Shown: one piece after another, positions 1,051 through 25,028 of the stretch
Layout: each line of letters opens with the position of its first letter
Position numbering within the stretch: the first letter of the stretch is position 1
DNA from: Sandaracinus sp.
GTDB taxonomy: Bacteria > Myxococcota_A > Polyangia > Polyangiales > Houyiibacteriaceae
Assembly: GCA_002699025.1 (NCBI GenBank)
Contig: PABA01000007.1
Location: forward strand, 1 to 58,089
DNA length: 58,089 nucleotides
Reading direction: 5' to 3'
Translations under genes and position numbers: made by a program
Notes under the pieces: generated by a model
Told to the model about the DNA's origin: nothing
Seen by the model: the letters and a program-made list of their open reading frames with translations, nothing else
Database searches by the model: none

Positions 1051-1851
1051 ATGGGCTTCTTCGGTCGCCTCGCCACGCTCATCAAGAGCAACCTGAATGA
1101 CCTGATCAGCAAATCGGAGGACCCCGAGAAGATGCTGAACCAGGTCATCCTGGACATGAACACGCAGCTGGTGGAGGCGAAGAAGCAGGTCGCCGTCGCC
1201 ATCGCCGACGAGAAGAAGCTCAAGAAGCAGCTCGACAACGAGAGCTCGGTCGCCGAGGAGTGGGAGCGCAAGGCCATGATGGCCGTGCGCGCCGGCGACG
1301 ATCAGCTCGCCAAGGAGGCGCTGCTCCGGAAGAAGGAGCACGACGCGCTCGCGGCCCAGTTCAAGGACCAGTGGGAGAAGCAGAAGCAGGCGACCGATCA
1401 GCTGAAGACGGCCCTGCGCGCGCTCAACCACAAGATCGAAGAGGCGAAGCGCAAGAAGAACGTGCTCATCGCCCGCAAGCGCCGCGCCGAGGCGATGAAG
1501 TCGATCCAGGAGACCATGAGCGGTCTCTCGGACACGAGCGCCTTCGACACCTTCGACCGCATGGCCTCCAAGATCGACCAGATGGAGGCCGAGACGGAGG
1601 CGGCGAGCGAGCTCAGCGAGGAGTACTCGGGCGACGTGCTCAAGCACAAGTTCGCCCAGCTCGAGGCCACGGCCGGCGCCGACTCGGACCTCGAGGAGCT
1701 CAAGAAGAAGATGGGCCTCATCGAGGAGGAGCCCGCCCCGGCCGTCGCCGCGCGCGTCGACGCCGAGGAGGAAGAGGAGATGAGCGAGGAGGAGCTCGCC
1801 GAGCTCGAGGAAGCCCTCGCCGCCCTCAAGGAACGCGAGATGGGCGGCTGA
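1051..1851 (+). CDS. pspA: PspA/IM30 family phage-shock protein
   Basis: This 266-residue protein opens with MGFFGRLATLIKSNLNDLI, the amphipathic membrane-binding helix of the PspA/IM30 family. It continues as a long charged coiled coil (roughly residues 25-215) including the NQVILDM segment typical of the family. PspA binds stressed inner membranes and forms ESCRT-III-like assemblies. The C-terminal 45 residues are very acidic (Glu-rich), longer than in E. coli PspA. GGAGG lies about 10 nt before the ATG. No PspF-type activator is adjacent; the nearest bacterial enhancer-binding protein is at 19.6 kb. Confidence 0.93.
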   Translation: MGFFGRLATLIKSNLNDLISKSEDPEKMLNQVILDMNTQLVEAKKQVAVAIADEKKLKKQLDNESSVAEEWERKAMMAVRAGDDQLAKEALLRKKEHDALAAQFKDQWEKQKQATDQLKTALRALNHKIEEAKRKKNVLIARKRRAEAMKSIQETMSGLSDTSAFDTFDRMASKIDQMEAETEAASELSEEYSGDVLKHKFAQLEATAGADSDLEELKKKMGLIEEEPAPAVAARVDAEEEEEMSEEELAELEEALAALKEREMGG

Positions 1852-16072: not shown

Positions 16073-17833
16073 ATGGGTCTGCGCTGGCGCCTGCTCCTGC
16101 TCTTCCTCCTCGCGGCCTTCGTGCCCTTCGTGGCCCTCGGCCTCGTCGTGCAGAAGACGCTGGTGGAGGAGCTCGAGGAGGACCACCGGCGCCTGCTCGA
16201 GTCCCGCGTCGAGGCCGCCCGCCGCCGCCTCGCCGAGCGCGAAGCCGAGGACCGGCGCGCCGTGCAGGCCCTCTGCGATCACGACCTGGTGATCGACCGG
16301 CTGCTCCTCGACCTGGCGACCGACCGCTTCGACCCCTCCCGCGAGCAGAGCCTGGTCACGCTCCTCCCGCCGCTGATGCGCGGGCGCCGCTTCGACACGC
16401 TGCACCTGCTCGACGCGCGCTCCGGACGCGATCGGGGCCGGGTGCTCGGCGCCGGCCACTACCCGGAGTCGGTGGGCGCCGACGCGGCGGCGCTCCTCGA
16501 CGCGACCGTGCGCGCCCGCGGCGAGCCCTTCGTGCGCGACGTGCGGATCGCCACCGAGGCGGGCCCCCGGGATCGGCGCACGCTGCTCCAGGGCTGCGTC
16601 GCCGAGCGCGACGGCGTGGCCGTGGGGGTGGTCGCCGGCCGGCACCTCGACGAGGGCTTCGGCGAGGCGCTCCTCGGCGACGTGCAGCCGGTGGCCTTCG
16701 CCATCGCCGGTCCGGACGAGACGCCGCGGCTCCCGGGCTCGGATCCGCCCGTCACCGTCGCGCGCTTCCTCGACGCGAGCGGCGAGCCCGCGCTCCGGCT
16801 CCTCGCCGCCATCGACGACGCCCCGCTCCGGGAGGACGTCGGCGGGCTCCGGCAGCGCTCCCTCTACGTGGCCGCCGGCGCCTTCGGCGTGGCCCTCCTC
16901 CTCGCCTTCGTCATGACCTGGACCCTGAGCCGCCCGCTCCGCGATCTCGAGGAGGCGACCCGCCGCGTCGCCGGGGGCGACCTCGAGTCGCAGATCCGCG
17001 TGAAGGCGCGCGGCGAGGTCGGGCGCACGCTCCAGGCCTTCAACGCCATGACCCGCGAGCTCGCGGCGACGCGGCAGAAGCTCCTCCGCGCGGAGCGCAT
17101 CGCCGCGTGGCGCGAGGTGGCCCGGCGCATCGCCCACGAGATCAAGAACCCGCTCCAGCCGATCCAGATGGAGATCGAGACCATGCGGAAGCTGCATGCG
17201 CGCGGGCACCCCTCCTTCGACGAGGAGTTCGAGCAGTCCACCTCCCTGATCCTCGAGGAGGTGAAGCGCATGAACAACATGGTCTCGGAGTTCAGCCGCT
17301 TCGCTCGCCTGCCCCGACCCAAGCCCGAGCCCCTCGACCTGCGCGAGCTGGCCCAGCACGTCGCCGGGCTCCACGACGGCGGCGAGGTCGCCCTCGAGCT
17401 GCACCTCCCGGCCGAGCCGACCGTGGTGCGAGCGGACCGGGAGCAGCTCACGCAGGTGCTCGTGAACCTGGTGCAGAACGCCTGCGACGCCGCCTCCGCG
17501 CGCCACCCGGGCCACGGCGCCCGGGTCGAGCTCGCCCTCGCGCCGACGGCCGATGGCGCCGAGCTGCGCGTCGCGGACAACGGCATGGGCATCGCGCCGG
17601 ACGACCGGCTGCGCATCTTCGAGCCCTACTTCACGACGAAGGCGAAGGGCACCGGCCTGGGCCTCGCGATCGTGCACCGCATCGTGGGCGACCACGGCGG
17701 GAGCATCGACGTGGAGGACGGCCTCGACGGGGGCGCGGCCTTCGTCGTCCTGCTCCCGAAGGGCGGCCCCCCCGAGGCCATCGCCGCCTCGCTCTCGGAC
17801 TCGGCGCTCCCGCTGACGCCCACGGCGCGCTGA
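16073..17833 (+). CDS. Membrane sensor histidine kinase, NtrY-like
   Basis: This 586-residue protein has a first transmembrane helix (residues 5-25), a periplasmic region of about 235 residues, a second helix (near 263-285), a HAMP linker (SRPLRDLEEATRRVAGGDLE), a dimerisation box IAHEIKNPLQPIQ with His355, and a GHKL ATPase domain with NLVQNACDA, VADNGMGI and GTGLGLAIV. The HEIKNPLQPIQ form is typical of NtrY-like kinases. The ATG abuts the stop of the solute-binding-like gene, and no response regulator follows. The operon context suggests it monitors the cell wall or a periplasmic ligand. The output partner must be elsewhere. Confidence 0.92.
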   Translation: MGLRWRLLLLFLLAAFVPFVALGLVVQKTLVEELEEDHRRLLESRVEAARRRLAEREAEDRRAVQALCDHDLVIDRLLLDLATDRFDPSREQSLVTLLPPLMRGRRFDTLHLLDARSGRDRGRVLGAGHYPESVGADAAALLDATVRARGEPFVRDVRIATEAGPRDRRTLLQGCVAERDGVAVGVVAGRHLDEGFGEALLGDVQPVAFAIAGPDETPRLPGSDPPVTVARFLDASGEPALRLLAAIDDAPLREDVGGLRQRSLYVAAGAFGVALLLAFVMTWTLSRPLRDLEEATRRVAGGDLESQIRVKARGEVGRTLQAFNAMTRELAATRQKLLRAERIAAWREVARRIAHEIKNPLQPIQMEIETMRKLHARGHPSFDEEFEQSTSLILEEVKRMNNMVSEFSRFARLPRPKPEPLDLRELAQHVAGLHDGGEVALELHLPAEPTVVRADREQLTQVLVNLVQNACDAASARHPGHGARVELALAPTADGAELRVADNGMGIAPDDRLRIFEPYFTTKAKGTGLGLAIVHRIVGDHGGSIDVEDGLDGGAAFVVLLPKGGPPEAIAASLSDSALPLTPTAR

Positions 17834-17961: not shown

Positions 17962-18582
17962 ATGCGCCGCTGGCTCGCCCTCGCCCTGCTCCTCGCCGCC
18001 GCCCCGCTCGTCGCCCCCGGTGATGCCCACGCGCTCCGATGCGGCACCGACCTCATCGACGTCGGCGACACGCGGGCGGAGGTGCGCGCGAAGTGCGGCG
18101 AGCCCCTCGACGTCGCCCGCCGCGTGGTGACGCAGACGATCCGTCAGCGCGTGGCCGCCGGGGCCGCCGTGATGCGCACCGTGAGCACGGTGGTCGAGAC
18201 CTGGACCATGAACTTCGGCCCGCAGAAGCTCATGCAGGAGATCACCTTCGCCAACGGCCAGGTGCAGCACATCCGCACGCTGGATCGGGGCTTCCGCGAG
18301 GACCGGCTCGGCGGCCTCGACCGCCCCGTGCGCCTCGGCGACACCCCTTCGCAGGTGCGGAGCGCCTGGGGCGCGCCGGCGGACACCAGCCGCCGCGTCG
18401 AGGACCGCACCGTGGCCCAGCGCCTCGACGACCTGACGGCCGCCGCGACCACCGTGAGCGTGGAGGTCGAGGTGTGGATCTTCAACTTCGGCCCGCGCCG
18501 CTTCATGCGGCAGGTGACCTTCGTCGACGGCCGGGTCGAATCGGTGGAGACCCTCTCCCGCGGCTTCGTCGACGGCGACTGA
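17962..18582 (+). CDS. Secreted DUF2845-like protein, duplicated domain
   Basis: This 206-residue protein has a signal peptide (residues 1-25, ending DAHA). Two similar halves each contain a 'GDT...V...G.P' turn followed by VVETWTMNFGPQKLMQEITF or the related VEVWIFNFGPRRFMRQVTF, then a strand and SRGF or DRGF. The first half has the RCGTDLIDVGD start seen in DUF2845 proteins. Function is unknown. GGAG lies before the ATG at 17962. It stands alone on its strand before the sigma-54 promoter at 18709. Confidence 0.8.
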   Translation: MRRWLALALLLAAAPLVAPGDAHALRCGTDLIDVGDTRAEVRAKCGEPLDVARRVVTQTIRQRVAAGAAVMRTVSTVVETWTMNFGPQKLMQEITFANGQVQHIRTLDRGFREDRLGGLDRPVRLGDTPSQVRSAWGAPADTSRRVEDRTVAQRLDDLTAAATTVSVEVEVWIFNFGPRRFMRQVTFVDGRVESVETLSRGFVDGD

Positions 18583-18708
18583 GGCCGGAGAGGCGCGGCG
18601 GGTCCGGCGGCGAGGTCGTGCCAGACCTGTGTCATCCGCCTGTGCCATTCCCTGTCACGCCCGCACCGTTCACGGCCGAGACGGGGAAAATTCCCACAGA
18701 ATCGAACG

Positions 18709-18724
18709 TGGCACATCGCTCGCA
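18709..18724 (+). promoter_or_regulatory. Sigma-54 (-24/-12) promoter upstream of the lipoprotein gene
   Basis: TGGCACATCGCTCGCA matches TGGCAC-N5-TTGCA at every position but one (C for the second T of TTGCA), with GG and GC separated by the required distance. The predicted start, near 18735, is almost on the GTG at 18737. Upstream are three CCTGTG/C words at 18626, 18639 and 18651 and an inverted GGGAA-AA-TTCCC at 18684-18695 that could be activator sites. The gene for a sigma-54 activator lies directly downstream. Confidence 0.65.
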
Positions 18725-18736
18725 CGACACACTCTC

Positions 18737-19576
18737 GTGCGCCCCACGCCGTCCCTCGCGCTGCTCCTCCTCCCGCTCGCCGCCTGCTCGAGCTCGCTGA
18801 CCTCCATGCAGCCCGCCCGGACCGTCCCCGAGGGACACGTCCAGGCCGCGACCTCCCTCTCCATCACGCCCCCCACGGGCATCGCCGGCGACGCCGTCGA
18901 CGGCCTCCGCGCCCTCGACGACGTCGGCCGGAACCCCACCGCCGCGGAGGTCCAGCAGATCGGCGAAGCCGCCGCCGCCGCCCTGGTCCAACCGCCGAGC
19001 GTCGACGCCCAGCTGGCCCTCGCCTACGGCGTGAACGAGCGCCTCGAGCTCGACGCCCGCGTCGGCAGCACCTCCGCCGGCGGCGGCTTCCGCCTCCAGT
19101 TCCTCCGCCGCTCCCCCGGCATCTACGGCGCCCTCGGCTTCCGCGTCGACATCGGCTTCAACGCCTTCCCCGTCGATCGCTTCACCGACCGCGTCCGCAT
19201 CCAGTCCTTCCGCCGCCAGGACTTCTCCGTCCCCCTCGTCCTCGGCTACAGCCGCCGCCGCGTCCACGTCTGGGCGGGCCCGAAGCTCATGTTCTCGCGC
19301 TACCGGGGCGCCGTCGCCGTCTGCACGCGCCGCGTGGACGACGACTGCCGCGGCGAGGCCACCCTGAACGCGAGCGGCCGCGCCACCTACGTCGCCGGCC
19401 AGCTCGGCTTCGCCATCGGATCGAACCGCGCCTGGTTCGCCGTCGAGCTGAGCATCGCCCGGGTCCGCGCCCTCGCCGACCTCGAGATGCAGGCCTCGGG
19501 CAGCGTGATGGAGCACGACCTCGACCAGCGCGGCCGCGTCTTCACCCCGGCGGTCGGCTTCCTCCTCTGGATCTGA
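18737..19576 (+). CDS. Lipoprotein, probable outer-membrane beta-barrel-like
   Basis: From the GTG at 18737 the 279-residue product begins RPTPSLALLLLPLAAC, a lipoprotein signal with lipobox LAAC. The mature protein is rich in alternating strands (ERLELDARVGSTSAGGGFRL, GIYGALGFRVDIGF, YVAGQLGFAIGS) and ends in FLLWI, which suggests a small outer-membrane barrel. The family is not recognised. Longer in-frame starts (for example 18629) would place about 36 non-signal residues ahead and would lie upstream of the sigma-54 promoter, so they are rejected. It converges with the sigma-54 activator gene. Confidence 0.72.
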   Translation: MRPTPSLALLLLPLAACSSSLTSMQPARTVPEGHVQAATSLSITPPTGIAGDAVDGLRALDDVGRNPTAAEVQQIGEAAAAALVQPPSVDAQLALAYGVNERLELDARVGSTSAGGGFRLQFLRRSPGIYGALGFRVDIGFNAFPVDRFTDRVRIQSFRRQDFSVPLVLGYSRRRVHVWAGPKLMFSRYRGAVAVCTRRVDDDCRGEATLNASGRATYVAGQLGFAIGSNRAWFAVELSIARVRALADLEMQASGSVMEHDLDQRGRVFTPAVGFLLWI

Positions 19577-19623
19577 GCGGCGGCTCGCCCGACCCCGGAG
19601 AGGCGCCGAAGACCCCCCGGCCC

Positions 19624-20934
<1,311 letters not shown>

Positions 20935-20940
20935 GGCGCC

Positions 20941-20946
20941 ACCCTA
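20941..20946 (-). promoter_or_regulatory. Candidate -10 box TAGGGT before the activator ATG
   Basis: On the minus strand TAGGGT is followed by GGCGCC and then ATG. The geometry equals that of the helicase gene, and no Shine-Dalgarno is present, so a leaderless mRNA is expected. Confidence 0.4.
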
Positions 20947-21042
20947 GTGCAGGATCCGGCGGGGCGAAATGCACCGAGCGCCATGCACCGCGGCAGCGGG
21001 CTCGGCCGAGCGGATCCCCGCGGAAACCGGCAGGGGCGCGCG

Positions 21043-21058
21043 TGGAACAGGGATGGCA
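21043..21058 (+). promoter_or_regulatory. Candidate sigma-54 promoter of the NfeD-SPFH operon
   Basis: TGGAACAGGGATGGCA keeps the essential GG and GC with the correct spacing and matches 9 of 11 informative positions of TGGCAC-N5-TTGCA. It lies 72 nt upstream of the ATG at 21130, in the divergent gap next to the activator gene. A direct repeat ATGCACCG at 20969-20976 and 20983-20990 is a possible activator site. Confidence 0.5.
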
Positions 21059-21061
21059 ACA

Positions 21062-21109
21062 GGCGACGCAGCCGGCGACGCAGCCGGCGACGCGACGGGC
21101 GACGCCCCC
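21062..21109. repeat. 12-bp tandem repeat, 4 copies
   Basis: GGCGACGCAGCC occurs twice, followed by two diverged copies, immediately downstream of the sigma-54 promoter candidate and in the predicted 5' untranslated region of the NfeD-like gene. Confidence 0.8.
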
Positions 21110-21129
21110 GCCGCCGACCGGAGACCGCC

Positions 21130-21738
21130 ATGCCCCTGCTCACCCTCTACCTCGCCGCCCTCGTCCTCGGGGGCACCCTCCTCGCCCTCTCCATCTTCGG
21201 CGGCGGCGACGGCGACCTCGACCTGGACGCGGACGCGGATCTCGACGCCGACGCGGACCTCGACGCGGACGCGGACGCCGATGCGGACGCCGACGCGCAG
21301 GGAGGCCTCTCGGCCGGCGACGCCCTCGCCTGGCTGCCCCTCTCCTCCCTGCGCTTCTGGACCTTCTTCCTCGGGTTCGGCGGCCTGACCGGCACGCTCC
21401 TCGCGCTCGTCGGCGAGCCGGCCTGGCTGAGCGCCCCCGCGGCCGGCCTCGTCGGCTGGCTCGCAGGCCTCTCCGCCGTGCGCGTCCTCCGCCGGCTCCA
21501 GCGCGAGAAGGTCTCCTCGAGCGTGGAGGAGACCGACTTCATCGGCGCCTCCGGCACGGTCCTGCTCCCCGTCGCCCGCGGTCAGCTCGGCCAGGTGCGC
21601 GTCCGCGTGAAGGGCCGCGACCTCGACGTCCCGGCCGAGACCCAGGACGACCACCCGCTGCTCGTCGAGGCCCCGGTGCTCGTCTGCGAGGTCCGCGACG
21701 GCGTCGCCCTCGTCAGCCGCCTGGACGAGGTCGCCTGA
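21130..21738 (+). CDS. NfeD/YqiJ-like membrane protein with OB-fold tail
   Basis: This 202-residue protein has an N-terminal membrane helix (LLTLYLAALVLGGTLLAL), an acidic loop of Asp-Ala-type repeats (about residues 27-57), two further helices (about 70-120) and a C-terminal OB-like domain (GASGTVLLPVARGQLGQVRV). This is the layout of YqiJ/NfeD-family partners of flotillins. Two SPFH genes follow directly, confirming the pairing. The Asp-Ala loop is encoded by hexanucleotide-like repeats (GACGCG) and could bind divalent cations. GGAG precedes the ATG. Expression probably depends on sigma-54. Confidence 0.85.
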   Translation: MPLLTLYLAALVLGGTLLALSIFGGGDGDLDLDADADLDADADLDADADADADADAQGGLSAGDALAWLPLSSLRFWTFFLGFGGLTGTLLALVGEPAWLSAPAAGLVGWLAGLSAVRVLRRLQREKVSSSVEETDFIGASGTVLLPVARGQLGQVRVRVKGRDLDVPAETQDDHPLLVEAPVLVCEVRDGVALVSRLDEVA

Positions 21739-21752
21739 ACGCGGTCCGCCGT

Positions 21753-21768
21753 CCGCCCGCGCGGGCGG
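21753..21768. other. 16-bp perfect GC palindrome after the NfeD-like gene
   Basis: CCGCCCGCGCGGGCGG is a perfect palindrome 14 bp after the stop codon. In RNA it would form a short GC stem and could be a processing or attenuation site between the NfeD-like and first SPFH genes. No T run follows. Confidence 0.4.
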
Positions 21769-21934
21769 CGGATCGAAGACCGCGGCAGCGACCGCGGGCT
21801 CCGCAGCCGAGCCGCGTCACGTCCCGAGGGCCCGCGTCCGAGCCGCATCGCCTCCCGAGGGCCCGCGCCCGAGCCCTCCTCACGACTCCCGGCGCCCCCC
21901 GCGCCACCACTCCCCGCCCGAAAGGAACCCACCC

Positions 21935-23260
21935 ATGAACGACCTCACCCCCCTCCTCGGCGGCCCGCTCGTCGCGGCCCTCGCCCTGGCGCTCGTCGCC
22001 CTCGCCGTCGCCGCCATCAAGCGCCTCCTCCACGTCTGCGAGCCGAACGAGGTGCTCATCTTCTCCGGCCGCAACCGCACCACGGAGGACGGCCGCAAGG
22101 TCGGCTACCGCGTCGTCTTCGGCGGCCGCGCCTACCGCTGGCCCATCCTCGAGCGCGTCGACCGCATGGACCTCTCGCTCCTCTCCGTGCCCATGGCCAT
22201 CCGCGGCGCCTACTCGGAGGGCGGCATCCCGCTCACCCTCCACGCCGTCGCCAACGTCAAGATCGCGAGCGACCCGCGCCTCATCGGCAACGCCATCGAG
22301 CGCTTCCTCGGGCACCCCCGCGCGGAGATCGCCCGGGTCGCCAAGGAGACCCTCGAAGGCCACCTCCGCGGCGTCATCGCGACCATGACCCCCGAGGAGG
22401 TCAACGAGGACCGGCTGAAGTTCGCCGAGCGCCTCTCCGAGGAGGCCGGCGCCGATCTTCGGAAGCTCGGGCTCCAGCTCGACGTCCTGAAGATCCAGGC
22501 CGTCAGCGACGACCGGAACTACCTCGACAGCATCGGCCGCGAGCGCCTCGCGGAGATCCTCCGGCTGGCCGAGGTCGCCGAGTCCGACGCCATCCGCACG
22601 GCCGAGAAGGCCGAGTCCGACGGCGAGGCGCGCGGCGGCGTCGCCCTCCGGAACGCCCACGCCCTGGTGCAGCGCGAGCAGAACCGGCTCCGGCAGATCA
22701 AGGCCGAGCTCTGGGCGAAGGTCCGCTCCGAGGAGGAGCGCGCCGAGCAGGCCGCCCAGGCCGCCCGGGCCGAGGCCGAGCGCGAGCTCCAGACCCTCCG
22801 CGCCGAGGTCGAGCGGCTCCGCCTCGCCGCCGACGTGACCATCCCCGCCGAGGCGGAGCGGCGCGCACGCACGCTCCTCGCGGCCGGCGAGAGCGCCGCC
22901 ATCTCGGAGAACGGCAAGGCCATGGGCGACGCGCTCCGCATCGTGGGCGAGGCCTGGAAGGAGTGCGGCGAGCGGGCGATGGACCTCGTCGTCCTGCAGC
23001 AGCTCGACACCATCTTCGATCAGGTGACCGAGGCCGCGCGCCGCGCCCAGCCCGAGAAGGTCAGCCTCCTCGACGGGGGCGACGGCTCGACCATCGCCGC
23101 CTACGTGAGCGCCTACCCGGCGACCGTCGGCGCGCTCCTCTCCCAGCTCGAAGAGACGCTCGGCGTCGACGTCCGCCGCGTGCTCCGCGGCGAGCCCACG
23201 CCTCCCCGCGACACCACGCCGCCGCTCCCCGGCGCCACGAGCGACCGCGAAGCCGCCTGA
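21935..23260 (+). CDS. SPFH/band-7 (flotillin-like) protein 1
   Basis: This 441-residue protein has an N-terminal transmembrane helix (residues 11-30), then CEPNEVLIFSGRNR, the start of the SPFH domain. ERVDRMDLSLLSVPM and RGAYSEGGIPLTLHAVANVKI are also typical of flotillin/YqiK proteins. A long Ala/Glu-rich coiled coil (about 205-320) follows, and the C-terminal region is globular. Flotillins form ring-like membrane scaffolds that organise microdomains. AAGGAA precedes the ATG. It is a paralogue of the next gene, which shares GNAIERFLG and the LEG-LRGV/I-AT-TPEEVN block. Confidence 0.92.
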   Translation: MNDLTPLLGGPLVAALALALVALAVAAIKRLLHVCEPNEVLIFSGRNRTTEDGRKVGYRVVFGGRAYRWPILERVDRMDLSLLSVPMAIRGAYSEGGIPLTLHAVANVKIASDPRLIGNAIERFLGHPRAEIARVAKETLEGHLRGVIATMTPEEVNEDRLKFAERLSEEAGADLRKLGLQLDVLKIQAVSDDRNYLDSIGRERLAEILRLAEVAESDAIRTAEKAESDGEARGGVALRNAHALVQREQNRLRQIKAELWAKVRSEEERAEQAAQAARAEAERELQTLRAEVERLRLAADVTIPAEAERRARTLLAAGESAAISENGKAMGDALRIVGEAWKECGERAMDLVVLQQLDTIFDQVTEAARRAQPEKVSLLDGGDGSTIAAYVSAYPATVGALLSQLEETLGVDVRRVLRGEPTPPRDTTPPLPGATSDREAA

Positions 23261-23266
23261 GCCCCC

Positions 23267-23300
23267 GCCGCCCTGCGCCCCCGCGCGGGCGGAGGGCGGC
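23267..23300 (+). other. Strong hairpin between the two SPFH genes
   Basis: GCCGCCCT (23267-23274) pairs with AGGGCGGC (23293-23300), and inside it CGCCC pairs with GGGCG, separated from the outer stem by one G-G mismatch. It lies directly after the first SPFH stop and 47 nt before the second SPFH start. It could attenuate transcription or stabilise the upstream mRNA and so set the ratio of the two flotillins. No T run follows. Confidence 0.5.
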
Positions 23301-23347
23301 GCGCCCCCCACGCCTCTCCCTACTCTCTCCCACCCCAGGAGCCCCTC

Positions 23348-24598
23348 ATGACCGTGCCCATTCTCATCGCGGTGACGATCCTCGTCCCGCTCGTCATCGC
23401 CGGCGTCGCCCGCGCCCTCATCCGCCTCTGCCAGCCGAACGAGGTGCTGGTGATCAGCGGCGGCAAGCGCCGCGTCGGCGCGAAGACCGTCGGCTACCGC
23501 CTCGTGCAGGGCGGCCGCGGCTTCATCTTCCCGCTCTTCGAGCGCGTCGAGCGCCTCGACCTGACCAACATGATCATCGACATCCGCGTCCAGGGCGCCT
23601 ACTCGAAGGGCGGCATCCCGCTCAACGTCGAGGGCGTCGCCAACGTGAAGATCGCCTCGAGCGAGCCGGTCATCGCCAACGCCATCGAGCGCTTCCTCGG
23701 CAAGCCGCGCCAGGAGATCATGGCCGTCGCCCGCGAGACCCTCGAGGGCAACCTCCGCGGCGTGCTCGCCACGCTCACGCCCGAGGAGGTGAACCAGGAC
23801 CGCGTGAAGTTCGCCCAGAGCCTCCTGCTCGAAGCGGGCGAGGACCTGCGCCGGCTCGGCATCGTGCTCGACACGCTGAAGATCCAGCACGTCTCCGACG
23901 ACCGCGGCTACCTCGACAGCATCGGCCGCAAGCAGTCCGCCGAGCTGCAGATGCGCTCGCGGGTCGCCGAAGCGGAGAACACGGCGCTCTCGAAGGAGCG
24001 GGACGCGTCGAACCACGAAGAGAAGGAGCGCAAGCGCATCGAGGCGGAGATCGCCCTCGCGAAGGCGGAGGCGGCCAAGCAGCTCGCCGACGCGGAGACC
24101 AAGAAGGAGGCCATCGTGGCCGAGCAGAAGGCGACCGTCGCCGCGATGGTGGCGAAGGCGCGGGCCGAGCTCGAGGTGCAGAAGCAGCGCTGCGAGCAGG
24201 TGCGGCTGCGGCTCGAGGCCGACGTGGTGGAGCCCGCCGAGGCGCGGCGCCAGGCGATGATCGAGGAGGCGCGCGCCGCCACGGCGAGCATCCGCGAGGA
24301 GGGCACGGCCACGGCCGCGGCGCTTCGCGACATGCACGCGGCCTGGAACGTCGCGGGGGATGACGCCCACCGCGTCTTCGTCGCGCAGAAGCTCGCCGGG
24401 CTCATCCGCCGGATGATGGAGACGGTCCACGACGCGCCGATCGGCCAGGTCACGGTCGTGGACGCCGAGCTCGGCGAGGGCGCCTCGCTGGCCGCGAAGG
24501 CGAGCGTGGCCACCGAGCTGCTCGAGAAGAGCGCCGGCCTCGACCTGCGCCGGATCCTCGGCGGGCGCGCGCTCCCGGCGGGCGTCGCCGGCGAGTGA
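23348..24598 (+). CDS. SPFH/band-7 (flotillin-like) protein 2
   Basis: This 416-residue protein has an N-terminal helix (residues 3-25), CQPNEVLVISGGKRR, SPFH-domain strands (FIFPLFERVERLDLTNM, RVQGAYSKGGIPLNVEGVAN), and a long coiled coil rich in Lys/Glu/Ala (about 200-310). It aligns with SPFH protein 1 across the whole SPFH region, so the pair arose by duplication and may form hetero-oligomers as eukaryotic flotillin-1/2 do. GGAG precedes the ATG at 23348. It is the last gene of the operon; a hairpin follows at 24646. Confidence 0.92.
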   Translation: MTVPILIAVTILVPLVIAGVARALIRLCQPNEVLVISGGKRRVGAKTVGYRLVQGGRGFIFPLFERVERLDLTNMIIDIRVQGAYSKGGIPLNVEGVANVKIASSEPVIANAIERFLGKPRQEIMAVARETLEGNLRGVLATLTPEEVNQDRVKFAQSLLLEAGEDLRRLGIVLDTLKIQHVSDDRGYLDSIGRKQSAELQMRSRVAEAENTALSKERDASNHEEKERKRIEAEIALAKAEAAKQLADAETKKEAIVAEQKATVAAMVAKARAELEVQKQRCEQVRLRLEADVVEPAEARRQAMIEEARAATASIREEGTATAAALRDMHAAWNVAGDDAHRVFVAQKLAGLIRRMMETVHDAPIGQVTVVDAELGEGASLAAKASVATELLEKSAGLDLRRILGGRALPAGVAGE

Positions 24599-25028
24599 GA
24601 GGCACCGCCGAGTGAGAAGCCGTCCGTGACGACGGCGCCGCAACAGCGGGCGGCTCGTCCCTCGGGGCGGGCCGCCCGCGCTCGTTCCTGCGGGCTCGCC
24701 CCGATGGCGCCGGCGGCGGCGAGGACGAGCCGGGTCGGAGGCCGGGCGGTGCCTCGACTCGTGGGTGGGTCGGATCGGGGGGCGGCGCGATGGTGCGCGG
24801 AGCGTTCCGAGGCGCCGCGGGCCGCTCACGCTCACCGCGACTCGGGCTCGCGCGCGACGCGCAGGTGGGCGCTCGACGCAAGGACTGGCGCTCGACGCTC
24901 GGGCTGGCGCTCGCGTGCCACGCTCGAACGGGGCCTGGGATCGACGGGATGAAGAGCGGGTTCTTCCCGTCCTCCTTCATGGCCCCGCGGGTGAGGGCAC
25001 GGGCACGGACGAGCAGGGGCAAGCGTCG
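24599..25028. other. 430-bp gap with hairpin and CGACGCTCG repeats
   Basis: No supported gene lies here. It contains the terminator-like hairpin at 24646-24679 and, at about 24875-24905, a block of GCTCGACGCTCG words like that at 280-440. It separates the plus-strand SPFH operon from the convergent kinase/regulator operon. Confidence 0.6.
24646..24679 (+). terminator. Hairpin after the SPFH operon, likely terminator
   Basis: GCGGGCGGC and GCCGCCCGC form a perfect 9-bp stem with a 16-nt loop, 48 nt after the second SPFH stop codon. The following bases are only mildly T-rich (CTCGTTCCT). Confidence 0.5.

What the first reader, a model, noticed from the sequence alone, without database searches (positions are those of the whole stretch)
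18601..24679. Sigma-54 island linking an envelope lipoprotein and an NfeD-SPFH operon to one activator
A sigma-54 activator gene (19624-20934) lies between two -24/-12 promoters. TGGCACATCGCTCGCA at 18709 is a near-perfect match facing the lipoprotein gene; TGGAACAGGGATGGCA at 21043 faces the NfeD-like plus two flotillin-like genes. The activator has no receiver domain. This looks like a self-contained membrane-stress or membrane-domain regulon similar in logic to PspF-pspA but with flotillins as output. I know of no described system with exactly this layout.
Basis: partly seen in the sequence, partly recalled or inferred. Interest (0 to 1): 0.72.

Follow-up and report, generated by a model that had tools for sequence, protein, structure and literature searches.

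The report
Sigma-54 switch for flotillin operons
An uncultured myxobacterium-like bacterium carries a dedicated sigma-54 activator gene placed back-to-back with an NfeD-flotillin membrane-scaffold operon, and this pairing, with its promoter and a probable activator-binding site, is conserved in distant relatives, which points to an undescribed way of switching on bacterial flotillins.

Summary
Both -24/-12 sites, the receiver-less sigma-54 activator (bEBP, 19624-20934) and the NfeD-flotillin-flotillin operon are at the stated places. The nfeD promoter is marginal alone (P about 0.03 against shuffles), but comparison settles it: in 11 loci with this bEBP divergent to nfeD-flotillin, 10 carry a good site there (one after a start-codon correction) and the eleventh a weaker one, against 6 of 117 related operons without the adjacent bEBP; two of those six genomes hold the bEBP elsewhere. 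A dyad (about GGTGnAWWTnCACC), probably the bEBP's binding site, lies about 65-102 nt upstream of the -24 element and far exceeds shuffles. The same bEBP family also faces a YqiJ-flotillin operon and an NfeD-slipin operon, so it looks like a dedicated regulator of NfeD-SPFH operons.

"One activator, two outputs" is weaker. The lipoprotein has a real sigma-54 promoter, conserved in 9 of the 12 closest homologues examined, but five of those genomes lack this bEBP, so control by it is unproven.

Precedents for sigma-54-linked NfeD/SPFH genes exist (Pseudomonas bac operon; SPFH gene in the rtc locus). I found no description of this bEBP or layout: a new variant of a known kind.

The parts
19624..20934 (-). 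Receiver-less sigma-54 activator (bEBP): helical N-terminal domain of about 112 aa, AAA+ with GAFTGA loop, Fis-type HTH
   Evidence: Pfam PF00158, PF25601, PF02954; alignment of orthologues; AlphaFold model, helical N-terminus with pLDDT about 90
20962..20976 (.). Dyad GGGCGAAATGCACCG, probable bEBP binding site (enhancer), between bEBP start and nfeD promoter
   Evidence: Palindromic motif in 11 loci, log-likelihood 53.0 against 26.8 +/- 2.7 in 60 shuffled sets; best hit in the 58 kb window. Binding is inferred
21043..21058 (+). -24/-12 promoter TGGAACAGGGATGGCA of the nfeD-flotillin operon
   Evidence: Weak alone (P about 0.03) but conserved in all bEBP-linked relatives
21130..21738 (+). NfeD-like protein (YuaF type, OB-fold C-terminus; acidic Asp-Ala linker)
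   Evidence: Profile of 8 orthologues: best PDB hit of 177,635 sequences is YuaF 2k14, E=0.031; no Pfam hit on its own; paralogous NfeD in L041 hits PF01957
21935..23260 (+). Flotillin-like SPFH protein 1
   Evidence: Band_7 E=1.9e-19; profile hits human flotillin-1 at E=8e-48
23348..24598 (+). Flotillin-like SPFH protein 2
   Evidence: Band_7 E=4e-24; kept in order in all relatives examined
18709..18724 (+). -24/-12 promoter TGGCACATCGCTCGCA of the lipoprotein gene
   Evidence: One of 9 strict matches in 9.24 Mb; site conserved in 9 of the 12 closest homologues, five of them in genomes without this bEBP
18737..19576 (+). Lipoprotein (LAAC lipobox), probably beta-rich outer-membrane type; membership of the bEBP regulon unproven
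   Evidence: Signal peptide and lipobox in sequence; no Pfam or NCBIfam hit; low-confidence beta-rich model; family in 37 of 184 genomes
18682..18696 (.). Dyad-like CGGGGAAAATTCCCA 27 nt above the lipoprotein -24 element; doubtful
   Evidence: Second-best motif hit in the window; absent at the same place in G046 and G047

Best explanation
The core is a two-part module. A receiver-less bEBP (19624-20934) binds a dyad (about GGTGnAWWTnCACC) between the two divergent genes and, with sigma-54 RNA polymerase at the -24/-12 site (21043), switches on the NfeD-flotillin-flotillin operon. Shown by comparison: promoter, dyad and divergent layout are conserved and track the activator. Inferred: binding and activation themselves; that the helical N-terminal domain receives the signal (perhaps membrane state, or free SPFH/NfeD protein, by analogy with PspA-PspF); and that the product is an inner-membrane scaffold that protects the envelope. 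The lipoprotein next door is a separate, more widespread sigma-54 gene that the module lies beside in this family; it may or may not have been captured by the same activator.
For: Site at the nfeD start in 9 of 11 bEBP-linked loci by automatic scoring (10 after correcting the L037 start) against 6 of 117 unlinked operons, Fisher p=1.3e-8. Two of the six exceptions (G058, G046) are genomes that hold this bEBP elsewhere. bEBP N-terminal profile in 13 of 184 genomes of the order, including all nine with the clade-I flotillin operon. Dyad motif far above shuffles. Same bEBP divergent to nfeD-flotillin in a distant family (G410), to YqiJ-Band_7 (G086) and to NfeD-slipin (G366), each with a -24/-12 site. 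rpoN present. bEBP and flotillin-1 distances correlate, r=0.88 (also expected from common descent).
Against: No expression or binding data. The window's own site is the second weakest of the set. In G046 and G153 the bEBP has no adjacent NfeD-SPFH operon, in G058 it is unlinked, and in G092 the site lacks the -12 GC. The dyad was found in the same sequences that define it; shuffles are the only control. Many operons of this kind have no bEBP and no site, so this control is optional for NfeD-flotillin function.
Confidence: 0.8

Rival explanations
1. One activator controls both outputs: the bEBP drives the lipoprotein and the NfeD-flotillin operon as a single envelope regulon.
For: Lipoprotein sits beside the bEBP in G000, G047 and G046, in G046 even without the flotillin operon, with a -24/-12 site in all three. 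Second-best dyad hit of the window is 27 nt above the lipoprotein -24; a similar one stands at the same distance in G001, which has the bEBP but an unlinked lipoprotein.
Against: The lipoprotein's site is conserved in G016, G021, G022, G024 and G025, which lack this bEBP, so another activator must serve it there. The dyad is missing at the lipoprotein in G046 and G047 and in the window lies closer to the promoter than bEBP sites usually do. Eight of the eleven bEBP-nfeD loci examined, and most of the family, show no lipoprotein beside the bEBP.
Confidence: 0.35
2. The nfeD operon is sigma-54 dependent but served by some other bEBP in trans; the adjacent bEBP regulates something else and its position is coincidence.
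For: In G046 and G153 the bEBP has no adjacent NfeD-SPFH operon. Each genome gives dozens to hundreds of first-look candidates for the bEBP query, so other activators are probably many.
Against: Site presence tracks this bEBP's linkage, the dyad lies between exactly these two genes, and the pairing persists with three different SPFH subtypes.
Confidence: 0.1
3. The -24/-12 sites are chance matches in GC-rich DNA and the operon uses ordinary promoters.
For: Loose consensus matches are not enriched in the window; the nfeD site alone has P about 0.03.
Against: Conservation at the same place in 10-11 of 11 bEBP-linked loci and Fisher p=1.3e-8 against unlinked operons; only 9 strict sites in the whole genome, one at the lipoprotein.
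Confidence: 0.05

Closest known systems
PspF || pspABC (E. coli phage-shock response)
   Same: bEBP without receiver, divergent to an operon for membrane-protecting proteins, sigma-54 promoter and activator sites between them (PMC9239133, PMC11237479)
   Different: PspF has no N-terminal regulatory domain (own knowledge of the family); this bEBP has a helical one and scores 201 bits against a PspF cut-off of 444. Output is NfeD plus SPFH, not PspA; no pspA next to it
Pseudomonas aeruginosa bac operon (PA3732-PA3729 and beyond)
   Same: Operon with a short NfeD (PA14_16160) and an SPFH protein (PA14_16180, PaFlo3) behind a proposed sigma-54 site (PMC10948618, PMC13086221)
   Different: Also encodes a PspA-like protein and a CesT-type chaperone; the papers' passages read here name no dedicated bEBP; one SPFH gene, not two
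SPFH gene in the rtc locus with RtcR (P. aeruginosa PaFlo8)
   Same: An SPFH gene in the locus of a sigma-54 bEBP (PMC13086221); RtcR is the top NCBIfam hit of this bEBP's AAA+ part
   Different: RtcR score far below cut-off (232 of 650 bits), match only over the AAA+ part (residues 148-372), no RNA-repair genes here
NfeD-flotillin operons yuaFGI (B. subtilis), yqiJK (E. coli) and the NfeD-SPFH2-SPFH2 form of cyanobacteria
   Same: Same gene pairing, including the duplicated SPFH form (PMC2636767)
   Different: yuaFGI is sigma-W dependent (PMC2636767); no sigma-54 activator was mentioned in the passages read

Membership tests
bEBP (sigma-54 activator) | AAA+ domain with Walker A and GAFTGA loop, plus Fis-type HTH | tested here: met
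   PF00158 E=4.5e-50, PF02954 E=7e-5; GETGTGKE and GAFTGA invariant in orthologues
PspF | Passes the NCBIfam PspF equivalog cut-off and lacks an N-terminal domain | tested here: not met
   200.7 bits against 443.55; helical N-terminal domain of about 112 aa
PspF | Works with PspA encoded next to it | tested here: not met
   No pspA in the module; nearest PspA is about 18 kb away at about 1051-1851
RtcR | Passes the RtcR equivalog cut-off; RNA-repair genes adjacent | tested here: not met
   232 of 650 bits, AAA+ part only; neighbours are NfeD, SPFH and lipoprotein genes
NtrC-type response regulator | N-terminal receiver domain | tested here: not met
   No receiver domain in Pfam scan; helical N-terminus
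Flotillin / SPFH family | SPFH (Band_7) domain with flotillin-type relatives | tested here: met
   Band_7; flotillin-1 E=8e-48
NfeD (YuaF type) | Membrane helices plus C-terminal OB-fold, encoded before SPFH genes | tested here: inconclusive
   Position fits; profile's best PDB hit is YuaF at E=0.031; no Pfam hit alone
Sigma-54 promoter | GG at -24 and GC at -12 with correct spacing, conserved | tested here: met
bEBP-regulated promoter | Binding and activation by the cognate bEBP | not testable with these tools
   Only a conserved dyad motif

The most novel reading that the evidence does not exclude
A previously unnamed family of sigma-54 activators with a helical N-terminal domain is the dedicated regulator of NfeD-SPFH operons in Myxococcota, kept while the SPFH type is swapped (flotillin pair, YqiJ-flotillin, NfeD-slipin), and it is held in check by the SPFH or NfeD product itself, as PspA holds PspF.
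Probability: 0.35. Interest if true: 0.7.

Novelty: new variant of a known kind. Interest (0 to 1): 0.55.

Why it matters
Bacterial flotillins and NfeD proteins are widespread, but when they are made is poorly known outside cases such as the sigma-W regulon of Bacillus. A dedicated activator with a predicted binding site gives a concrete handle: its inducing signal would tell what flotillin scaffolds are for in these bacteria. It also places SPFH operons beside PspA operons as outputs of PspF-like switches.

Tried and rejected
1) Filing the bEBP as PspF, NtrC or RtcR: rejected on cut-offs and domains. 2) Judging the sites from the window alone: inconclusive, loose scan not enriched. 3) A shared activator site across nine lipoprotein promoters: none clearly beat shuffles; a recurring TGTGCCA element was seen but is not significant. 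4) Folding the lipoprotein with two sequences: low confidence, not used as evidence beyond 'beta-rich'. 5) Fold search of the bEBP: the listed matches are other sigma-54 activators, nothing specific to the N-terminal domain; the sequence profile of that domain also found nothing in the PDB. 6) Plasmid collection: only distant flotillins. 7) Literature searches combining sigma-54/RpoN with flotillin/NfeD/SPFH found no description of this layout; absence is limited to the held open-access library. 8) Other strict sigma-54 sites of the genome: none has the dyad at the expected place except a doubtful one in L154, so no further regulon members were claimed.

Full report
WHAT IS THERE. The window is contig C18 of a 9.24 Mb genome; relatives with the same module are uncultured myxobacterial MAGs. 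The described features are at the stated places. From left to right: an NtrY-like histidine kinase (16073-17833; the NtrY likeness is my reading of the sequence), a DUF2845 protein (17962-18582), a lipoprotein gene (GTG 18737-19576), the activator on the minus strand (19624-20934), then nfeD-like (21130-21738), flotillin 1 (21935-23260) and flotillin 2 (23348-24598). The activator has an AAA+ sigma-54 domain, GAFTGA loop and Fis-type HTH and no receiver. Its first 112 residues or so are predicted as a confident helical domain with no relative found in Pfam or by sequence in the PDB. It is below the cut-off of every NCBIfam equivalog listed. rpoN is present.

IS IT MORE THAN CHANCE. In the window alone, loose matches to the consensus are not enriched, and the nfeD site has only P about 0.03. 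Comparison decides. Orthologous operons (about 57-75% identity in flotillin 1) were fetched from relatives. Where the same activator is divergent to nfeD there is a -24/-12 site in front of nfeD: TGGCACGTGTCTCGCA, TGGCACATCGCTCGCA, TGGCACGCGCTTCGCA, TGGCACGTACCTCGCA, TGGCACGAAGAGCGCA, CGGCACGACGCTCGCA and others. Across 128 non-redundant operons the best upstream score is 19.3 (median) in 11 activator-linked loci and 15.0 in 117 others; at a cut of 18 the counts are 9/11 versus 6/117 (Fisher p=1.3e-8; Mann-Whitney p=3e-6). One of the two misses (L037) is a mis-called start codon, its site TGGCACGTACCTCGCA lying just before GTG 7785; the other (L064) has the weaker TGGAATAGGACTCGCA at the same place as its relative L063. 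Of the six exceptions, L039 (G058) and L041 (G046) come from genomes that hold this activator elsewhere. Loci are related by descent, so these p-values overstate independence.

THE ACTIVATOR FAMILY. A profile of the N-terminal region finds the family in only 13 of 184 genomes of the order. All nine genomes with the clade-I flotillin operon have it. In a sample of the whole phylum it appears in 9 of 379 genomes, including G410 with the same activator-nfeD-flotillin layout and site. In G086 the activator faces a YqiJ (PF21001) plus Band_7 operon with CGGCACGCGCTTCGCA. In G366 it faces an NfeD (PF01957) plus slipin-like Band_7 operon with TGGCACCCTTCTCGCT. In G092 it faces an NfeD-like gene at a contig end; the best candidate there lacks the -12 GC. 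So the regulator is kept while the SPFH type changes. In 10 linked loci the activator and flotillin 1 distances correlate (r=0.88), which is also expected from common descent.

A PROBABLE BINDING SITE. A palindromic motif search in 11 regions from the activator start to the -24 element gave a dyad of consensus about GGTGnAWWTnCACC (window: GGCGAAATGCACC at 20963; others GGCGAAAATCGCC, GGCGAATATCGCC, GGTGTATTATACC), lying about 65-102 nt upstream of the -24 element, sometimes with a second weaker copy. Its log-likelihood is 53.0 against 26.8 +/- 2.7 in 60 shuffled sets. This is where a bEBP enhancer is expected; binding is inferred.

THE LIPOPROTEIN. Its site TGGCACATCGCTCGCA is one of only 9 strict matches in the genome. 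The lipoprotein family is in 37 of 184 genomes, and 9 of the 12 closest members have a -24/-12 site just before the gene. Five of those genomes (G016, G021, G022, G024, G025) have no match to this activator's profile. Its neighbour in G025 is the same histidine kinase (62% identity), which also lies near it in the window and G046, and a more distant kinase in G026 and G016. The lipoprotein sits beside the activator only in G000, G046 and G047; in G046 without the flotillin operon. The second-best dyad hit of the window is 27 nt above the lipoprotein -24, but it is closer than bEBP sites normally are (own knowledge) and is missing in G046 and G047. I therefore accept the lipoprotein promoter as sigma-54 dependent and leave its activator open (about 35% for this bEBP).

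HOW IT PROBABLY WORKS. Inferred: the bEBP sits on the dyad; an unknown signal received through the helical N-terminal domain frees its ATPase; it remodels sigma-54 polymerase at 21043 and turns on NfeD plus two flotillins, which assemble a membrane scaffold. In Staphylococcus aureus flotillin domains are reported to hold unfolded membrane-associated proteins, with FloA working with NfeD (PMC11222466 abstract; PMC13086221 passages).

WHAT IS KNOWN. PspF-pspA shares the logic (PMC9239133, PMC11237479). The Pseudomonas bac operon holds a PspA-like protein, a short NfeD and an SPFH protein behind a proposed sigma-54 site (PMC10948618, PMC13086221), and an SPFH gene lies in the RtcR locus (PMC13086221). 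NfeD-SPFH operons, including duplicated SPFH genes, are classical, and yuaFGI is sigma-W dependent (PMC2636767). I found no description of a dedicated bEBP for NfeD-flotillin operons. Hence: new variant of a known kind.

Noticed in passing
18709-18739; L184, L242, L245, L246, L247, L248: The distance from the -24 T to the lipoprotein start codon is 28-30 nt in the window, G046, G021, G022, G016, and by the same reckoning G024 and G001. The predicted start is within a few nt of the start codon, so a leaderless sigma-54 mRNA seems conserved.
   Followed up: partly
1051-1851 (+): A PspA/IM30 gene lies in the same window (PF04012, E=5e-50), preceded by a gene at 600-1004; no strong -24/-12 site stands before it. 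A second PspA is on contig C8.
   Followed up: no
L040 (G000:C135) and L041-L051: The genome has a second, paralogous NfeD-flotillin-flotillin operon (48% identity) without this activator and without a -24/-12 site; this version is common in the order.
   Followed up: partly
L041 8182 (-), G046: In G046, where the activator has lost its flotillin neighbour, the paralogous NfeD operon elsewhere has a good -24/-12 site (TGGCACCCCTTTCGCT), possibly rewired in trans.
   Followed up: partly
21214-21300: The NfeD-like protein carries a very acidic Asp-Ala linker (DADADLDADAD), of variable length between orthologues.
   Followed up: no
16073-17833 (+): HAMP-HisKA-HATPase kinase next to the lipoprotein also in relatives (62% identity in G025 and G046); it could belong to the lipoprotein's own sigma-54 control, but no partner response regulator was identified nearby.
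   Followed up: partly
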